NCBI GenBank assembly: GCA_946479405.1
Contig: CAMLGD010000173.1
Location: forward strand, 1 to 7,023
DNA length: 7,023 nucleotides
Reading direction: 5' to 3'
From: an uncultured Vogesella sp.
GTDB taxonomy: Bacteria > Pseudomonadota > Gammaproteobacteria > Burkholderiales > Chromobacteriaceae
Made by a program: the position numbers and the translations under genes. This document shows, piece by piece, positions 1,116 to 7,023 of the stretch (within the stretch, counting starts at the first letter, position 1; every line of letters begins with the position of its first letter). Below the pieces are notes generated by a model. That model saw only the letters and a program-made list of their open reading frames with translations, was not told the DNA's origin and did no database searches.

Positions 1116-1862
1116 TTACAGCGTGCCCAGACGCTGCTTGGCTTTTTGCGCCGCAGTCGACGCCGGATACAGCTTGATCAGCCGCTGCAGCGTGCTGCGG
1201 GCCTGATCCTTCTGCTGCAGCGCGATCTGGTTGTCCGCCATCAGCCGTAGCGCGTCGGCGGCGCGCGGGTTCTTCGGATACTGCTCGGCAAAACGGCGCT
1301 GGATATCGATGGCGGCGTCGTACTGTTTCAATGCGGTATGCGCCACACCCAGCCAGTAATTGGCCTCGATGCCCTGCGGCGTACCCGGATAGCTGTCCAT
1401 CACGCCCTTGAGCTGACCGACCGACTGGGCGAAGTCGCGCTTGCGCAGTGTGTCCAACGCCTTGCCCAGTGCTGCATCGGCGGCCGATACCGTCGCCACC
1501 GGTGCCTCGGCCTGTGCCGCGCTGGCCTCGCCCTGTGGCCGTTCCAGCTTGCCCAGCCGCAGGTCCAGATCGGCATACAGGTCGTTCTGCCGCTTCTGCG
1601 TTTCCGCCAGCTGGTGCTGCAGCACTTCATTCTGGCCGCGCAGATTGGCCATCTCCGTCTGCATTTCCCCCACCTGGTTCACCAGATCCAGCAGGCGCTG
1701 GTTGGCCAGTTTCGCTTCCACGTCGGACAGGCGCGCACTGGCCTGCTGCGCATTGTTCGACATCTGGCTCTGCAGCTGGCGGCGGGTTTCTTCCAGGTCG
1801 GTAGAGGTGGCACAAGCGCCCAGCAGCAAGGGCAGCAACAGCGGCAACAGTCGGTTTTGCAT
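1116..1862 (-). CDS. cpoB: Tol-Pal system protein CpoB (YbgF), with a lipobox
   Basis: CpoB (YbgF) is a periplasmic protein that binds TolA and links the Tol-Pal machine to PBP1B/LpoB peptidoglycan synthesis at division. The 248-residue product has three parts. Residues 1-16 form a hydrophobic leader ending LLLGAC, which fits a lipobox with Cys17 as the lipidated residue. Residues of about 20-105 are Gln/Glu/Leu-rich heptad-like sequence, matching the N-terminal coiled coil that trimerises in the family. From about 125 to the end there are tetratricopeptide-like repeats, including the signature [18 protein letters not shown] and a closing [14 protein letters not shown]. It is the last tol-pal gene here, as in other Proteobacteria. 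It starts about 21 nt after the T-run of a terminator that follows pal, and no clear Shine-Dalgarno precedes the ATG at 1862-1860. The family call is firm; the exact start and lipidation are inferred. Confidence 0.93.
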
Positions 1863-1941: not shown

Positions 1942-2478
1942 TTACGGGTAAACAAAGTCGGCGCGACGGTTTTCGGCATAATCCTGCTCGCTAGTCCCCT
2001 GGGCGCGCGGTTTTTCCTTGCCCAGGCTCACGGCTTCCAGCTGTTCCGGCTTCACGCCCAGCACTTCCAGGCCCTGCTTCACGCTCTCGGCGCGCATCAG
2101 GACCAGCGCCCGGTTTTATTAACGGCATCCACGGGCCTCGGTATTAAACGGGATCGTAACATTGGTCTTGTAATTGTTGATGTATTTGGCATGCGCCTGT
2201 ACGGTGCTCTTGTCGCCATCACGAATGCTGGACTGGTCAAAATCGAAATACACGCTCTTGCCGTTCACACCGGCAAATGCGGCGGCCTCGGCGGCACGGG
2301 CATCCACTTCCGGCAGCGGCTGAGCCGGTTTCAGCTCGTTGTTGCTGCCCGCCGTGCCATTGCCGGCAGTGACCGGCGCGCTGCCGGCCATTGTGTCGCT
2401 GGGTGCCTTGCTGGGAGTGGAGGCGCAGGCGCTCAGCAATACCACGCTGGCGGCAACGATAAACGGAACAACTTTCAT
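1942..2478 (-). pseudogene. pal: peptidoglycan-associated lipoprotein Pal, interrupted by two in-frame stop codons
   Basis: Pal is the outer-membrane lipoprotein that binds peptidoglycan through an OmpA-like domain and is the partner of TolB and TolA. The start is secure: ATG at 2478-2476 with AAGGAG six bases upstream, a signal peptide and lipobox LLSAC with Cys18. After a Pro/Ala-rich linker the OmpA-like domain begins near residue 75 (SVYFDFDQSSIRDGDK). Translation stops after residue 119 at tandem TAA codons (2121-2116). The same frame then runs on for 57 codons with a normal Pal C-terminus, including VKPEQLEAVSLGKEKPRAQG and ending ENRRADFVYP, to a stop at 1944-1942. Full length would be 178 codons, normal for Pal. 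The damaged stretch (residues about 110-128, bases about 2095-2151) replaces the usual EGNTDERG..EYNLALGQRR motif that binds peptidoglycan, with no net change of length. The cause could be local sequence error or true mutation. Confidence 0.93.
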
Positions 2479-2581: not shown

Positions 2582-3853
2582 TTACGGGTTGAACGGCCCC
2601 CAGGCGGCATCCTGTACTTCACCTTCAATCACCCCCAGCCGCACCCGGCCCGGGTGTGCCACCGAGGCGGCAAACAGCACACTGCGCCCACCCTGATCAC
2701 TGGCATACAGCACCATCTTGCCATTGGGGGCGAAGCTGGGTGACTCATCATAAGCGCTGTTGCTCAGCTGGCGGCTGTCGCCGGCGGCCAGATCATGCAA
2801 CATCACCTTGAAACGGCCGGCCTCGCGCTGCACATACACCAGCTGGCGGCCATCCGGCGAGAACGACGGCGACACGTTGTAGCTGCCCTGGAAGGTGAGG
2901 CGGCGCACATTGCGGCTGCCATCCACCGGCTGCACATACAGTTGCGGGCTGCCGCTGCGGTCGGAGACAAAGGCGATGCTACGGCCATCCGGGCTCCACA
3001 CCGGCTCGGTATCGATGGCGCTGCTGTAGGAGAAGCGCTGCAGGCCGCTGCCATCGGCATTCAGCAGATAGATCTGCGAATTGCCGGACAGCGTCAGCAC
3101 CACTGCCAGCCGGCGGCCGTCCGGGCTCCAGGCCGGTGCCGAATTGCTGCCCTTGAAGTTGGCCAGTATCCGACGCTGGCCGGTGGACAGATCCTGCACG
3201 TAGATGATCGGCTTCTTGTTCTCGAACGATACGTAGGCCAGGCGGCCGCCGTCGTAGCTCCACGCCGGCGAGATGATCGGCTCGTTGGAGCGCAGCACGG
3301 TCTGCGCACGGCGACCGTCGACATCCGCCACCTGCAGCCGCCATTCCTTGCCGACCTGGATCACGAAGGCAATGCGGCTGGCAAACAGGCTTTTCTCGCC
3401 CAGCAGCGCCTCATACACCATGTCCGCCATGCGATGCGCCACATCGCGCAGCTGCGACGGGTGGACATCGAACTCCATCGCCAGCTTCTGCTCGCGCGGC
3501 GCCAGCGTATCGGCCCAGAACGTTACCCGCAGCATGCCGCCATCCAGCCGCGTCACCCGGCCGTACACCATGGCGCGCGCGCCCTGCTGCTGCCAGTAGC
3601 CGGCATCCAGCGACGCACCGCTGGCCGGCACCGGCAGCAGGTTGAACATGCCGGTCATCGCCAGATCGCTCTGCACAGTGCTGGTCACCGCATCCGGCAG
3701 CCATTCCTCATTGGTCAGCGGCAGGACCGCCAGCGGGTAGCGGTTGACACCTGCACCGACGATATCCACGGTCAGATCGGCGCGGGCCAGCGGTGCGGCC
3801 AACAGCAGGCAACACAGCAACAGGCGACGGACAATAACAAAGCAGGTGTGCAA
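2582..3853 (-). CDS. tolB: Tol-Pal system beta-propeller protein TolB
   Basis: TolB is the periplasmic protein that shuttles between Pal and TolA and is also used by some colicins. The 423-residue product is about the family's usual length. Residues 1-25 are a Sec signal peptide with a long hydrophobic run and an ARA cleavage site before Asp26. An N-terminal alpha/beta domain follows (LTVDIVGAG, YPLAVLPL; to about residue 165). The C-terminal propeller has five visible PD40-type repeats, each with a core like PAWSPDGRRLA or PSFSPDGRQLVYV, and ends AAWGPFNP. The start is a TTG at 3853-3851: no ATG or GTG gives a full signal peptide, and AAGGAG lies six bases upstream within the last codons of tolA. 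Only three bases separate the tolA stop from this start, so coupling is likely. The gene is intact. Confidence 0.97.
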   Translation of the reverse strand: MHTCFVIVRRLLLCCLLLAAPLARADLTVDIVGAGVNRYPLAVLPLTNEEWLPDAVTSTVQSDLAMTGMFNLLPVPASGASLDAGYWQQQGARAMVYGRVTRLDGGMLRVTFWADTLAPREQKLAMEFDVHPSQLRDVAHRMADMVYEALLGEKSLFASRIAFVIQVGKEWRLQVADVDGRRAQTVLRSNEPIISPAWSYDGGRLAYVSFENKKPIIYVQDLSTGQRRILANFKGSNSAPAWSPDGRRLAVVLTLSGNSQIYLLNADGSGLQRFSYSSAIDTEPVWSPDGRSIAFVSDRSGSPQLYVQPVDGSRNVRRLTFQGSYNVSPSFSPDGRQLVYVQREAGRFKVMLHDLAAGDSRQLSNSAYDESPSFAPNGKMVLYASDQGGRSVLFAASVAHPGRVRLGVIEGEVQDAAWGPFNP

Positions 3854-3856
3854 GGT

Positions 3857-4708
3857 TTACTCCTTGGGGCGGAAATTCAGGGTCAGCCGGCGAACATCGG
3901 TAAATTCAACCCCCTTGGGTAGTGGGGGCATACGCCGCACCTGGGCCAGGGCGGCCAGTACCGCCTGATCCCAAGCCGTAGAAGTACTGGCACGCACTAT
4001 CCGGGTGTTCATGATTTCAAGGGTCGGCAACAGAATGATTTCAACGGTAGTCTGCGGATCGCCCTTGATGCCATCAGGCATGACGATGTAAGGGCGAACT
4101 CGGTTGCGGATGGCTTCACCATATTGCTGCGTCAGGTCGGGTTGTCCATTAGGTATCCCCTGCCTGCTTCCTGTTTTGCCGCCCGCCTGCGTCACCTTGC
4201 CCTTGCCCGGGCCTGGAGGCAGATCGTCAAGTTCGGACAGCAGATCGTCGGTACGCGGCGGCGCTGCTTTGGCGGCGGGCTTGGGCTGTGGCGCGGCCGG
4301 TTTGGCCACCGGGGTCGCGGGCGCCGGTTTGCTCGAGGCCGGCGGCAACGGTTTTTTGGTGAGCTCCTTGTCCTGTGGTAGCGGGCTTGGCACCGGCTTC
4401 GGCTGCGGCTTGCCGCCCTTGACGGTGATGTCGGCGCTGTTCAGCGTCGGCAGCTGTGCTGCCGGTGCCGGCGCGACTTTGGCGGCTGCCGGCTTGCTGA
4501 CTGGCGCCGGTGTAGCCGCCGGCGCAACGGCCGGCTTGGTCGCGGATCGGGTGATGGCACCGCCACCGGCCCACAGTTCTACCGCCAGCGGTGGCGGGGT
4601 GTGCAGCACCGCCGGTGCGGCGGACCACCACAGTACGGCGATGACCGCCACGTGCAGCAGCGCCGACAGCAGCCAGGCGGCAGCGCCCGGTTGGCGTGCG
4701 GCCAACAT
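3857..4708 (-). CDS. tolA: Tol-Pal energy-transducing protein TolA
   Basis: TolA spans the periplasm and passes energy from TolQR to TolB and Pal. The 283-residue protein has the three expected domains. Residues of about 10-29 are one transmembrane helix carrying Ser15 and His19, the SxxxH pattern needed for contact with TolQR. Residues of about 40-185 are a Pro/Ala/Lys-rich linker (KPAVAPAATPAPVSKPAAAK, PQPKPVPSPLPQ). Residues of about 190-283 are the globular C-terminal domain (DLTQQYGEAIRNRVRP, AWDQAVLAALAQVRRMPPLP, ending LTLNFRPKE). The linker is much shorter than in E. coli TolA (421 residues in all) and looks extended like that of TonB rather than helical. The ATG at 4708-4706 shares its A with the tolR stop (TGATG), and an AGGGGAG site lies just before it. 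TonB was considered, but the C-terminal domain and the neighbours tolR and tolB favour TolA. Confidence 0.94.
   Translation of the reverse strand: MLAARQPGAAAWLLSALLHVAVIAVLWWSAAPAVLHTPPPLAVELWAGGGAITRSATKPAVAPAATPAPVSKPAAAKVAPAPAAQLPTLNSADITVKGGKPQPKPVPSPLPQDKELTKKPLPPASSKPAPATPVAKPAAPQPKPAAKAAPPRTDDLLSELDDLPPGPGKGKVTQAGGKTGSRQGIPNGQPDLTQQYGEAIRNRVRPYIVMPDGIKGDPQTTVEIILLPTLEIMNTRIVRASTSTAWDQAVLAALAQVRRMPPLPKGVEFTDVRRLTLNFRPKE
3860..3865 (-). promoter_or_regulatory. ribosome binding site fixing the TTG start of tolB
   Basis: AAGGAG lies exactly six bases before the TTG at 3853 and overlaps the last Lys and Glu codons of tolA, immediately before its TAA stop. The spacing is identical to that of pal, which supports TTG as the real tolB start. 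Confidence 0.8.
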
Positions 4709-5115
4709 CAGCTCCCCTGCTGGCGTACGGTCAACGCCACGCGCTGGATGCCGGCTTCGTGCAGGCGATCGGCCACCGCCACCACCGCGCTGTATTTCAA
4801 GTCGCGGTGCGCGGTCACTACCACCGGCCGGTTGTCGTGTACCCGTGTCTGCACCGCGGCAATCAAGGCATCCAGATCGGCTACCGGCTGGCGCTTGCCA
4901 CCTTCGCCGACAAAATAATGGCCATCGGCTTCGATGCTGATTTCCAGCGGTGTGGTGTCCACCTGTGCGGCGCGGGTCACGCTGGGCACGTCGATCACCC
5001 CGGGGGTAAACATCGGGGCGGTCACCATGAAGATCACCAGCAGCACCAGCATCACGTCGATGTAAGGCACCACGTTCATCTGGTTCATCATGCGGCGGGG
5101 ACGGCGTTGCAGCAT
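4708..5115 (-). CDS. tolR: Tol-Pal stator protein TolR (ExbD/TolR family)
   Basis: TolR is an inner-membrane protein that, with TolQ, uses the proton gradient to drive TolA. The 135-residue product starts MLQRRPRRMMNQMNVVPYID, a basic cytoplasmic tail followed by one transmembrane helix (about 16-36) with VPYIDVMLVLLVIFMVTAPM. Asp20 is the proton-path aspartate (Asp23 in E. coli). The periplasmic domain includes ISIEADGHYFVGE and the NRPVVVTAHRDLKYSAVV stretch of ExbD/TolR proteins. The frame extends upstream to 5262, into the methyltransferase gene, but the ATG at 5115 gives the normal length and has an AGGA nine bases ahead. It overlaps tolA by one base. tolQ, which normally precedes tolR, is absent. 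ExbD is the alternative, but the tolA and tolB neighbours decide. Confidence 0.95.
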   Translation of the reverse strand: MLQRRPRRMMNQMNVVPYIDVMLVLLVIFMVTAPMFTPGVIDVPSVTRAAQVDTTPLEISIEADGHYFVGEGGKRQPVADLDALIAAVQTRVHDNRPVVVTAHRDLKYSAVVAVADRLHEAGIQRVALTVRQQGS

Positions 5116-5135
5116 TGGCAGTATTCCTGGGCGGT

Positions 5136-5162
5136 GGATGCAGGATGTTAGCATCTGCATCC
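5136..5162 (-). promoter_or_regulatory. stem-loop in the tolR leader
   Basis: GGATGCAG (5136-5143) pairs perfectly with CTGCATCC (5155-5162). Inside, one bulged base and an ATG/CAT pairing extend it to an 11-bp stem with a 4-nt loop. It ends 20 nt before the tolR ATG, just upstream of the AGGA site, and has no T-run, so it is not a normal terminator. It may stabilise or process the RNA or tune tolR translation; function unknown. Confidence 0.5.
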
Positions 5163-5213
5163 GGCGAATGGTTTCGGCAATGTAACGACCGGCGGCGGCC
5201 GGCAGGGTTCCCG

Positions 5214-5879
5214 TCAGCGGCGACGCAGCAGGGTCATACCATCCCCCATCGGCAGGATGCACTGGTCGACGCGGGCATCGTGCTTGAGGCTGGCATTGAA
5301 TGCGCGCAGTACCTCCACACTGTGCGGCTGCCCCGGCTGCGACTCCACCACCCGGCCGTTAAGCAGGATATTGTCGATGGCAATCACCCCACCCGGGCGC
5401 ACCAGTTGCAGGCAGGCCTCGTAGTAGTCCGGGTAGTTGCTCTTGTCGGCATCGATGAAGGCCAGATCGAAGCTGCCGGCGGCGCCCTCGGCCAGCAGCT
5501 GGTGCAGCGTCAGCAGGCCATGCTGCAGGTACAGCTGGATGCGTTCGGCCACGCCGGCCTGCCGCCAGTACTGCATGGCAATGCTGGAAAACTCCACGCT
5601 CATGTCGCAGGCCACCGTGCGGCCGTGCTCGCCCATCGCCAGCGCCACCGTCAGCGCGCTGTAGCCGGTAAAAGTGCCGATTTCCAGATAGCGGCGCACC
5701 CCCAAGAGCTGCACCAGCCAGCCCAGAAACTGCCCCTGCTCCGGCGCAATCTGCATCTTGGCCATGCGGTGACCGGCGGTGAATTCGCGCAGCTGGCGCT
5801 GTACCGGGTGCTCCTGCACGCCGATGTCGAACAGGTATTCGGCCACCTGCGGGCCAAATGTCATGGTGTGTCGTGTCAT
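5214..5879 (-). CDS. class I SAM-dependent O-methyltransferase (Methyltransf_3 / CCoAMT-like)
   Basis: A predicted cytoplasmic O-methyltransferase of 221 residues, normal for the small caffeoyl-CoA-type family. Motif I for SAM binding is VRRYLEIGTFTGYSALTVAL (61-80). The acidic strand after it is VACDMS (89-94), and FIDADKSNYPDYYEACLQLV (141-160) and PGGVIAIDNILLNGRV (162-177) carry the metal-ligand residues Asp143, Asp169 and Asn170 expected for divalent-metal-dependent members. The natural substrate cannot be told; bacterial members accept catechol-like compounds or have unknown targets. The ATG at 5879 was chosen because an in-frame TTG at 5900 lies in the T-run of the preceding terminator; a second ATG at 5864 is possible. 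No useful Shine-Dalgarno is seen (GAGG is only one base from the ATG). It lies 98 bp before tolR, where tolQ would be expected; a role in the Tol system is not implied. Confidence 0.92.
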   Translation of the reverse strand: MTRHTMTFGPQVAEYLFDIGVQEHPVQRQLREFTAGHRMAKMQIAPEQGQFLGWLVQLLGVRRYLEIGTFTGYSALTVALAMGEHGRTVACDMSVEFSSIAMQYWRQAGVAERIQLYLQHGLLTLHQLLAEGAAGSFDLAFIDADKSNYPDYYEACLQLVRPGGVIAIDNILLNGRVVESQPGQPHSVEVLRAFNASLKHDARVDQCILPMGDGMTLLRRR

Positions 5880-6190: not shown

Positions 6191-7023
6191 CTAACGGTGT
6201 TGCTGCGGCGATGGCACATGACGCTGCAGCCAGGCCTGCCGCTGCTGCAGCAGCATATGCCGGCGGCGGCGCAGCACGCCAAATTGCAGGTAGCTTAGCC
6301 AGCACAGCAGCAGGCTGAGCAACAGCCACACCAGCAACAGCCACAGCCGCGGCGAGTGGATGTCTTCCCAGCCCAGCTGTCGCGCCAGATCCAGCCGCAA
6401 GGCAAACGGGCCGCTGCGCACTTCGACGCTGGCATGCAGGCGCCCGCCCCAGCTGTCCTCCTGCGGCAGCGCGGTCTGCAACGGCACCAAGGTTGGCCGC
6501 AGACGCTCATCCGTCATGGTCGGCAACAGTGCAGACGGCTGCAGCCACAATGCCAGATAGTTGCCGGGTACACCGGGCAACAGCAGCAATTGCTGCAGGC
6601 CGCTGCGGTCGCGCCACGGCGCCACCGCCGGCTGGCCCGCCTGCAACAGCGGCATGATCTGCGCCACCGCGGGCTGCCGGCTCAGATCCTGTGTCGGCAG
6701 CACGTCGCCGCCTAGCAGGAACGGTGCCACCTGGCGCACCAGCAGCTGCTGGCTGCGCACCTCCCCGCCCAGCAACGCCACGCGCTGCAACAGGGGAAAC
6801 GCCTGATGCAGGTTGGACAGATAGCGCCCCGGGTCGCTGCCGGCCTCGGCTTGCTGCAGGCTTTCCAGATCCTGCAGCAGCTGCTCGCCGGCGTCCTGCA
6901 GCTGGCTCAACCGTGTCCGCACTTGCGCCGCCAGCTGTTGGGTCTGCTCGTCCAGCTCGCTCTGGGCCCGGGCACGCTCGTAGGCCAGCAGCCAGCTGCC
7001 GCCCAGCAAGGCCAGCGCCAGCC
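6191..7023 (-). CDS. sensor-like two-TM membrane protein, N-terminus beyond the window
   Basis: I do not recognise this protein. The frame is open from the right edge to a TAG at 6193-6191, about 276 codons. It begins inside a hydrophobic stretch (LALALLGGSWLLAYERARA), likely the first transmembrane segment, then has a Gln/Leu-rich helical region (about 15-55 residues further on) and a region of about 160 residues with PFLLGG, RDRSGLQQLLLLPGVPG and YLALWLQPS, resembling the periplasmic ligand-binding part of sensor proteins. A second transmembrane helix (LWLLLVWLLLSLLLCWLSYL, bases about 6346-6272) is followed by RRRR and only about 25 cytoplasmic residues. The topology is that of a histidine kinase or cyclase input module, but no output domain follows, and the next 70 bases lead straight into the DUF3460 promoter. 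It may be a stand-alone sensor or a truncated one. Its true start cannot be seen. Confidence 0.8.
   Translation of the reverse strand, partial: LALALLGGSWLLAYERARAQSELDEQTQQLAAQVRTRLSQLQDAGEQLLQDLESLQQAEAGSDPGRYLSNLHQAFPLLQRVALLGGEVRSQQLLVRQVAPFLLGGDVLPTQDLSRQPAVAQIMPLLQAGQPAVAPWRDRSGLQQLLLLPGVPGNYLALWLQPSALLPTMTDERLRPTLVPLQTALPQEDSWGGRLHASVEVRSGPFALRLDLARQLGWEDIHSPRLWLLLVWLLLSLLLCWLSYLQFGVLRRRRHMLLQQRQAWLQRHVPSPQQHR
6489..6504 (+). repeat. third copy of the AAGGTTGGCCGCAG repeat
   Basis: AAGGTTGGCCGCAGAC here is identical over 16 bases to 1080-1095, and its first 14 bases also match the opposite arm of the inverted repeat after cpoB. This copy is inside the sensor-like gene, where it encodes Leu-Arg-Pro-Thr-Leu on the minus strand. 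A chance exact match of this length in 7 kb is unlikely, although GC-rich composition raises the odds somewhat. Confidence 0.6.

What the first reader, a model, noticed from the sequence alone, without database searches (positions are those of the whole stretch)
2095..2151. Tandem in-frame TAA codons and a dense substitution patch in the peptidoglycan-binding motif of pal
The pal frame is intact on both sides, and the lesion causes no length change: codons that should read like EGNTDERG-R-EYNLALGQRR read PFNTEARGCR, stop, stop, NRALVLM, after which a perfect Pal C-terminus continues for about 50 codons. Many substitutions in about 57 nt with both flanks pristine is not what slow pseudogene decay looks like. 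Options are a local assembly or base-calling error, a recent templated mutation, or a real loss of Pal in a strain that keeps the rest of the Tol system. Pal is normally needed for outer-membrane integrity, so each outcome matters: a corrupt reference, or a natural Tol system without functional Pal.
Basis: partly seen in the sequence, partly recalled or inferred. Interest (0 to 1): 0.72.

Follow-up and report, generated by a model that had tools for sequence, protein, structure and literature searches.

The report
Probable sequence error in pal gene
A patch of about 56 scrambled letters, including two stop codons, interrupts an otherwise healthy cell-envelope gene of a Vogesella bacterium; its make-up looks more like a local sequencing mistake than a real mutation, although only the raw reads can prove it.

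Summary
The window is the tolR-tolA-tolB-pal-cpoB-purE-purK region of a Vogesella (TolB 93% identical to V. oryzae). The pal frame has 178 codons; codons 110-128 (2095-2151) differ from V. oryzae at 17 of 57 nt, without indel, with TAA TAA at 2116-2121. Ten of the 19 codons give a residue or stop seen in none of 91 homologous rows; the 50 codons downstream look normal. Neither half of the patch occurs in 61 family genomes, no template was found, and 59 of those 61 carry a stop-free Pal. The patch is an altered version of pal itself, not a replacement. Of 16 changes polarised by two relatives, 14 are transversions and 11 are A<->C or G<->T; elsewhere in the window these are 64 of 446 (Fisher p = 2e-6). 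Those are pairs Illumina instruments confuse most. In 10 of 13 Vogesella genomes the site holds a GC-rich hairpin, a context linked to Illumina errors. Best reading: local base-calling or gap-filling error. Very recent real loss of Pal is not excluded: no reads, own genome or conspecific are held; a dephasing test was negative.

The parts
1942..2478 (-). pal, peptidoglycan-associated lipoprotein gene; 178-codon frame interrupted by two stops
   Evidence: TIGR02802 is the best family of both pieces, the piece before the stops and the piece after them
2095..2150 (-). core of the patch: 17 differences from V. oryzae, no indel, 10 of 19 codons with residues or stops unseen in 91 homologous rows
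2116..2121 (-). tandem in-frame TAA TAA (codons 120-121)
2152..2187 (-). upstream shoulder (codons 98-109): 10 differences from V. oryzae, lower G+C, mostly tolerable residues; may be part of the patch or natural divergence
2094..2110 (-). place where 10 of 13 Vogesella genomes have a perfect hairpin (8-bp stem, 1-nt loop); it is not present in the window's own sequence
1945..2094 (-). codons 129-178, normal Pal C-terminus (5 of 50 residues differ from V. oryzae)
2582..3853 (-). tolB, open
   Evidence: TIGR02800 over cut-off; 93% identical to V. oryzae
3857..4708 (-). tolA, open, with a mosaic-looking C-terminal domain
   Evidence: TIGR02794 best match, under its cut-off
4708..5118 (-). tolR, open
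   Evidence: TIGR02801 best match, 118.2 bits against a cut-off of 127.3
1116..1862 (-). cpoB/ybgF, open
   Evidence: TIGR02795 best match, 83.5 bits against a cut-off of 90.1

Best explanation
The patch is a local consensus error in the sequence record, not a mutation in the bacterium. Most likely a short stretch of poor Illumina base calls, at a site whose normal sequence forms a GC-rich hairpin with GGC motifs, reached the consensus where good reads were few, for instance when a gap was closed with one bad read. Shown: the patch is an altered copy of the local pal sequence, without indels, with a substitution spectrum unlike evolution in the same window, between constrained flanks. Inferred: the platform, the low coverage and the gap filling. 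The organism then carries an ordinary Pal.
For: In register the patch region matches V. oryzae pal at 43 of 60 nt, shifted at most 23: letters were changed one by one. Polarised changes in the patch: 2 transitions, 11 A<->C or G<->T, 3 other transversions; in the rest of the coding window 258, 64, 124; Fisher p = 2.3e-6, and 3e-4 within nonsynonymous codons. Against uniform noise the A<->C/G<->T excess has p = 0.004 to 0.008. AC and GT are reported as the bases most often miscalled for each other on Illumina (PMC6053417, passages). 10 of 13 Vogesella genomes have an 8-bp-stem hairpin at the site; GGC motifs and inverted repeats are reported triggers of miscalls and GGC-type motifs of coverage dips (PMC3622629 and PMC4872057, passages). 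Outside patch and shoulder pal shows 8 of 250 changes at codon positions 1+2 against 19 of 90 at position 3. 59 of 61 family genomes have a stop-free Pal.
Against: No reads, coverage or platform are known. Dephasing test negative: a changed base equals a neighbouring base in 6 of 17 cases, 8.0 expected. PMC6053417 itself found A-to-C and T-to-G rare. The other Vogesella genomes with the hairpin are intact. Three of the 16 changes are other transversions. Such errors usually hit one strand and are outvoted at normal coverage. If the shoulder belongs to the patch, its tolerable residues are less error-like.
Confidence: 0.72

Rival explanations
1. Real, very recent loss of Pal: one mutational event (a burst of error-prone synthesis or oxidative damage) changed about 56 bp and made two stops, in a strain that keeps the rest of the Tol system; a 119-residue fragment without the peptidoglycan-binding motif would be made.
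For: The frame is otherwise intact; 8 of the 17 differences from V. oryzae are G>T or C>A, as oxidative damage gives (recalled). The tol-pal operon is dispensable in E. coli K-12 though essential in Caulobacter crescentus and Pseudomonas aeruginosa (PMC7391070, passages). 6-10 OmpA_C matches in each of 13 Vogesella genomes leave room for partial redundancy.
Against: 17 changes in 57 bp in one event without any indel, between constrained flanks, is denser than any mutation cluster I know of (recalled). 59 of 61 family genomes keep Pal and no stop-bearing Pal appears among those 59 best matches.
Confidence: 0.17
2. Templated replacement: gene conversion or template switching from an unseen donor, such as a decayed OmpA-like copy elsewhere in the genome.
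For: Sharp downstream edge at 2095; the window's own genome could not be searched.
Against: No donor in the window, in 61 family genomes at up to 3 mismatches, plasmids, E. coli genomes, phages or viral contigs (two exact 20-mers). The residues occur in none of 91 homologous rows.
Confidence: 0.05
3. Chimeric or mixed-strain contig: the patch marks a join between reads of different strains.
For: TolA looks mosaic, its C-terminal domain resembling Vogesella sp. XCS3 (P0033) more than its N-terminal relatives P0021/P0022 do. No near-identical protein exists in the database for Pal (best 83%) or TolA (best 73%).
Against: The patch residues match no allele seen, and pal on both sides of it resembles the same relatives, V. 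oryzae and V. facilis.
Confidence: 0.05

Closest known systems
Pal of Vogesella oryzae (P0001, L001) and V. facilis (P0002)
   Same: Same operon position (V. oryzae), same length in V. oryzae (178 aa), lipoprotein N-terminus and C-terminal third alike
   Different: Both have an uninterrupted peptidoglycan-binding motif where the window has the patch and two stops
Illumina context-specific miscalls at GGC motifs and inverted repeats (PMC3622629, PMC4872057, PMC6053417; passages)
   Same: Substitutions without indels, excess of A/C and G/T confusions, hairpin and GGC context in relatives
   Different: Reported errors affect single reads, often one strand; here they would have reached a consensus, which needs low coverage (not known)
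Recent pseudogenes
   Same: In-frame stops in a conserved gene
   Different: No indel, no decay outside the patch, changes packed into 56 bp and almost all transversions

Membership tests
Functional Pal (TIGR02802 / PF00691) | Uninterrupted C-terminal OmpA-like domain | tested here: not met
   Two in-frame TAA at 2116-2121; the two pieces score 22.9 and 54 bits against a cut-off of 125.35
Functional Pal (TIGR02802 / PF00691) | Conserved peptidoglycan-binding motif | tested here: not met
   10 of 19 codons in 110-128 give residues or stops unseen in 91 rows
Functional Pal (TIGR02802 / PF00691) | Place between tolB and cpoB | tested here: met
Pseudogene by slow decay | Relaxed constraint over the whole gene | tested here: not met
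   8 of 250 changes at codon positions 1+2 against 19 of 90 at position 3 outside patch and shoulder
Templated mutation (gene conversion or template switch) | A donor sequence that explains the changes | tested here: inconclusive
   None found, but the own genome is not held
Illumina base-calling error | Excess of A<->C and G<->T over the evolutionary background | tested here: met
   11 of 16 against 64 of 446, p = 2.3e-6
Illumina base-calling error | Dephasing signature: the called base equals a neighbour | tested here: not met
   6 of 17, 8.0 expected under uniform noise
Illumina base-calling error | Low read support or strand bias at the site | not testable with these tools
   No reads held

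The most novel reading that the evidence does not exclude
The strain has truly lost Pal's peptidoglycan-binding domain while keeping TolA, TolB, TolR and CpoB, perhaps under pressure from a Tol-dependent phage or bacteriocin that also favoured the swapped TolA C-terminal domain, and the loss arose as a single dense cluster of mainly transversion mutations.
Probability: 0.1. Interest if true: 0.55.

Novelty: not a real feature. Interest (0 to 1): 0.12.

Why it matters
If it is an error, the record carries a false pseudogene of a core envelope gene, and the spectrum test used here (a local excess of A<->C and G<->T over the contig's own divergence) could flag such patches without reads. If it is real, it would be a natural Tol system without Pal and an unusual mutation cluster.

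Tried and rejected
Inversion, reversal or complement of a sub-segment around the patch: gains at most one matching base. Shifted reading: no shift of 1-12 nt fits. Template in the window or in the 601 bp around it: only short repeats; the longest exact match of the patch elsewhere in the window is 12 nt. Strong structure of the window's own strand at the site: z -0.37, unremarkable. Foreign DNA: no hit at E up to 1 for 116 bases in plasmids, E. coli genomes and phages, no exact 20-mer in viral contigs. Dephasing: negative. Density of change by itself as an argument: rejected, because tolA has a denser stretch.

One search compared the window with V. oryzae only and is unpolarised (patch 17 changes, 3 transitions; all 1181 changes, 622 transitions). 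One search tried a three-way DNA alignment that came out badly aligned (24 of 57 patch sites usable; 5 of 9 changes A<->C or G<->T, Fisher p = 0.007, transition test not significant); it was replaced by the codon alignment.

Papers: Illumina errors; 12 of 21 listed, one opened in passages; Vogesella genomes; 20 of 159 listed, none opened; pal and pseudogene; 12 of 40 listed, PMC7391070 opened in passages; sequence-specific errors; 10 of 22 listed, two opened in passages; assembly errors; 4 listed, none opened. I make no claim that natural pal loss is not in print.

Full report
Identity of the window. No own genome is held. The minus strand encodes, in order, an ORF without NCBIfam match, a 59-aa ORF (DUF3460-like by recall), a methyltransferase-like protein (weak matches only), TolR, TolA, TolB, Pal, CpoB/YbgF and PurE, then PurK (named by recall; 91-96% identical in ten Vogesella loci). 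TolR, TolA and CpoB are best matches slightly or clearly under their curated cut-offs; TolB and PurE are over them. TolB is 93% identical to Vogesella oryzae, and the DNA aligns along nearly the whole window with that species. The genus is therefore Vogesella; the species seems unrepresented: the closest protein found is 83% identical to the 119-aa truncated Pal (20 hits among 176 candidates) and 73% to TolA (44 hits among the 7995 candidates scored). There is thus no conspecific for the sister-strain test.

The lesion. The pal frame runs from 2478 to 1942. Aligned by codon with V. oryzae, without a gap over 178 codons, codons 110-128 differ at 17 of 57 nt and 10 of 19 residues, including TAA TAA at 2116-2121; codons 129-178 differ at 24 of 150 nt and 5 of 50 residues; codons 1-97 at 49 of 291 and 11 of 97. 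In 91 rows of homologous sequence from the loci fetched (some genomes appear twice), the window's residue or stop at these ten positions is never seen; the only other such positions between codons 90 and 178 are codon 100 and the last codon, and the last one's residue does occur in P0004 and P0005. None of the 91 rows has a stop. Across ten genes compared with ten Vogesella loci, the window departs from 31 of 1107 invariant residues: 12 in pal (10 of them in the patch), 10 in the TolA C-terminal domain, 9 elsewhere.

Family background. A search of 61 genomes of the family with the Pal model found a stop-free, essentially full-length match of at least 120.9 bits in 59; 47 pass the curated cut-off of 125.35. 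The other two (G022, G060) have only weaker OmpA-type matches; whether those genomes are incomplete is not told. Each of the 13 Vogesella genomes has one such Pal, and the next match in any of them is at most 80.5 bits, although each has 6-10 OmpA_C matches. A hidden second canonical Pal would be unusual, but cannot be excluded in the window's own genome.

Nature of the changes. The patch is not an insertion of unrelated sequence: in register a 60-nt stretch around it matches V. oryzae pal at 43 positions, shifted by up to 12 nt at most 23. No inversion explains it, and no template was found in the window, plasmids, E. coli genomes, phages, viral contigs (two exact 20-mers) or the 61 family genomes (halves of 30 and 27 nt, up to 3 mismatches, 0 of 61 each). 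With codon alignments to V. oryzae and a second Vogesella genome (L102), changes at sites where both agree were classified. Patch: 2 transitions, 11 A<->C or G<->T, 3 other transversions. Rest of the coding window, shoulder left out: 258, 64, 124. Fisher p = 2.3e-6; within nonsynonymous codons 10 of 14 against 56 of 241, p = 3e-4. Against uniform noise the excess has p = 0.004 (16 changes) or 0.008 (17 changes). Fifteen sites in the patch carry a base found in none of 13 Vogesella genomes. So the patch fits neither evolution nor quite uniform noise, but noise biased towards the pairs with similar dye spectra: PMC6053417 (passages) states that AC and GT are most often miscalled for each other in Illumina sequencing, while noting that in its own data A-to-C and T-to-G were rare.

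Context. At codons 123-129, 10 of 13 Vogesella genomes have a perfect GC-rich hairpin of 8 bp with a single-base loop and the other three have stems of 6-7 bp; 89 of 2312 pieces of 75 nt from five loci have a stem of 8 or more. GGC motifs and inverted repeats are reported triggers of Illumina miscalls (PMC3622629, passages) and GGC-type motifs of coverage drops (PMC4872057, passages). This makes the site a plausible weak spot, no more: the other genomes with the hairpin are intact. PMC3622629 also says that GGC alone does not reliably predict errors. A test for dephasing, in which a wrongly called base should equal its neighbour, was negative (6 of 17, 8.0 expected).

Selection. Outside the patch and shoulder, pal has 8 of 250 changes at codon positions 1+2 and 19 of 90 at position 3, the pattern of a working gene. 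If the lesion is real it is very recent and arose at once.

Limits. The upstream shoulder (codons 98-109) has 8 polarised changes in 34 sites (4 of 8 A<->C or G<->T), lower G+C (0.31 against 0.47 in V. oryzae) and residues mostly seen in other Pal proteins: it could be the faint end of the same patch or natural divergence. Density alone does not single out the patch, because tolA has a denser stretch, where an alignment suggests a mosaic allele.

Verdict. A local sequence error is the best reading (0.72). Real loss of Pal by a one-off mutation cluster remains possible (0.17) and would be interesting, since tol-pal is essential in some species and dispensable in others (PMC7391070, passages). 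Only the reads or a resequenced amplicon can decide.

Noticed in passing
3857-4240 (tolA, C-terminal domain): TolA looks mosaic: its N-terminal part resembles P0021/P0022, while its C-terminal domain departs from 10 residues invariant in ten Vogesella loci and shares several variant residues with Vogesella sp. XCS3 (P0033). It holds the densest stretch of codon-position 1+2 change in the window.
   Followed up: partly
5118-5217 (upstream of tolR), and L099: tolQ is not next to tolR in the window. In seven Vogesella genomes searched, a tolQ over cut-off was found in six, and in V. oryzae (G001) two partial pieces at contig ends; in G012 tolQ lies about 178 kb from pal, and in L099 it follows a Sua5-like ORF (name by recall).
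   Followed up: partly
6191-7021: An ORF with no NCBIfam match at E <= 0.001 and only 36-40% identity to nine of ten Vogesella loci (73% to V. oryzae): the fastest-diverging gene of the window.
   Followed up: no
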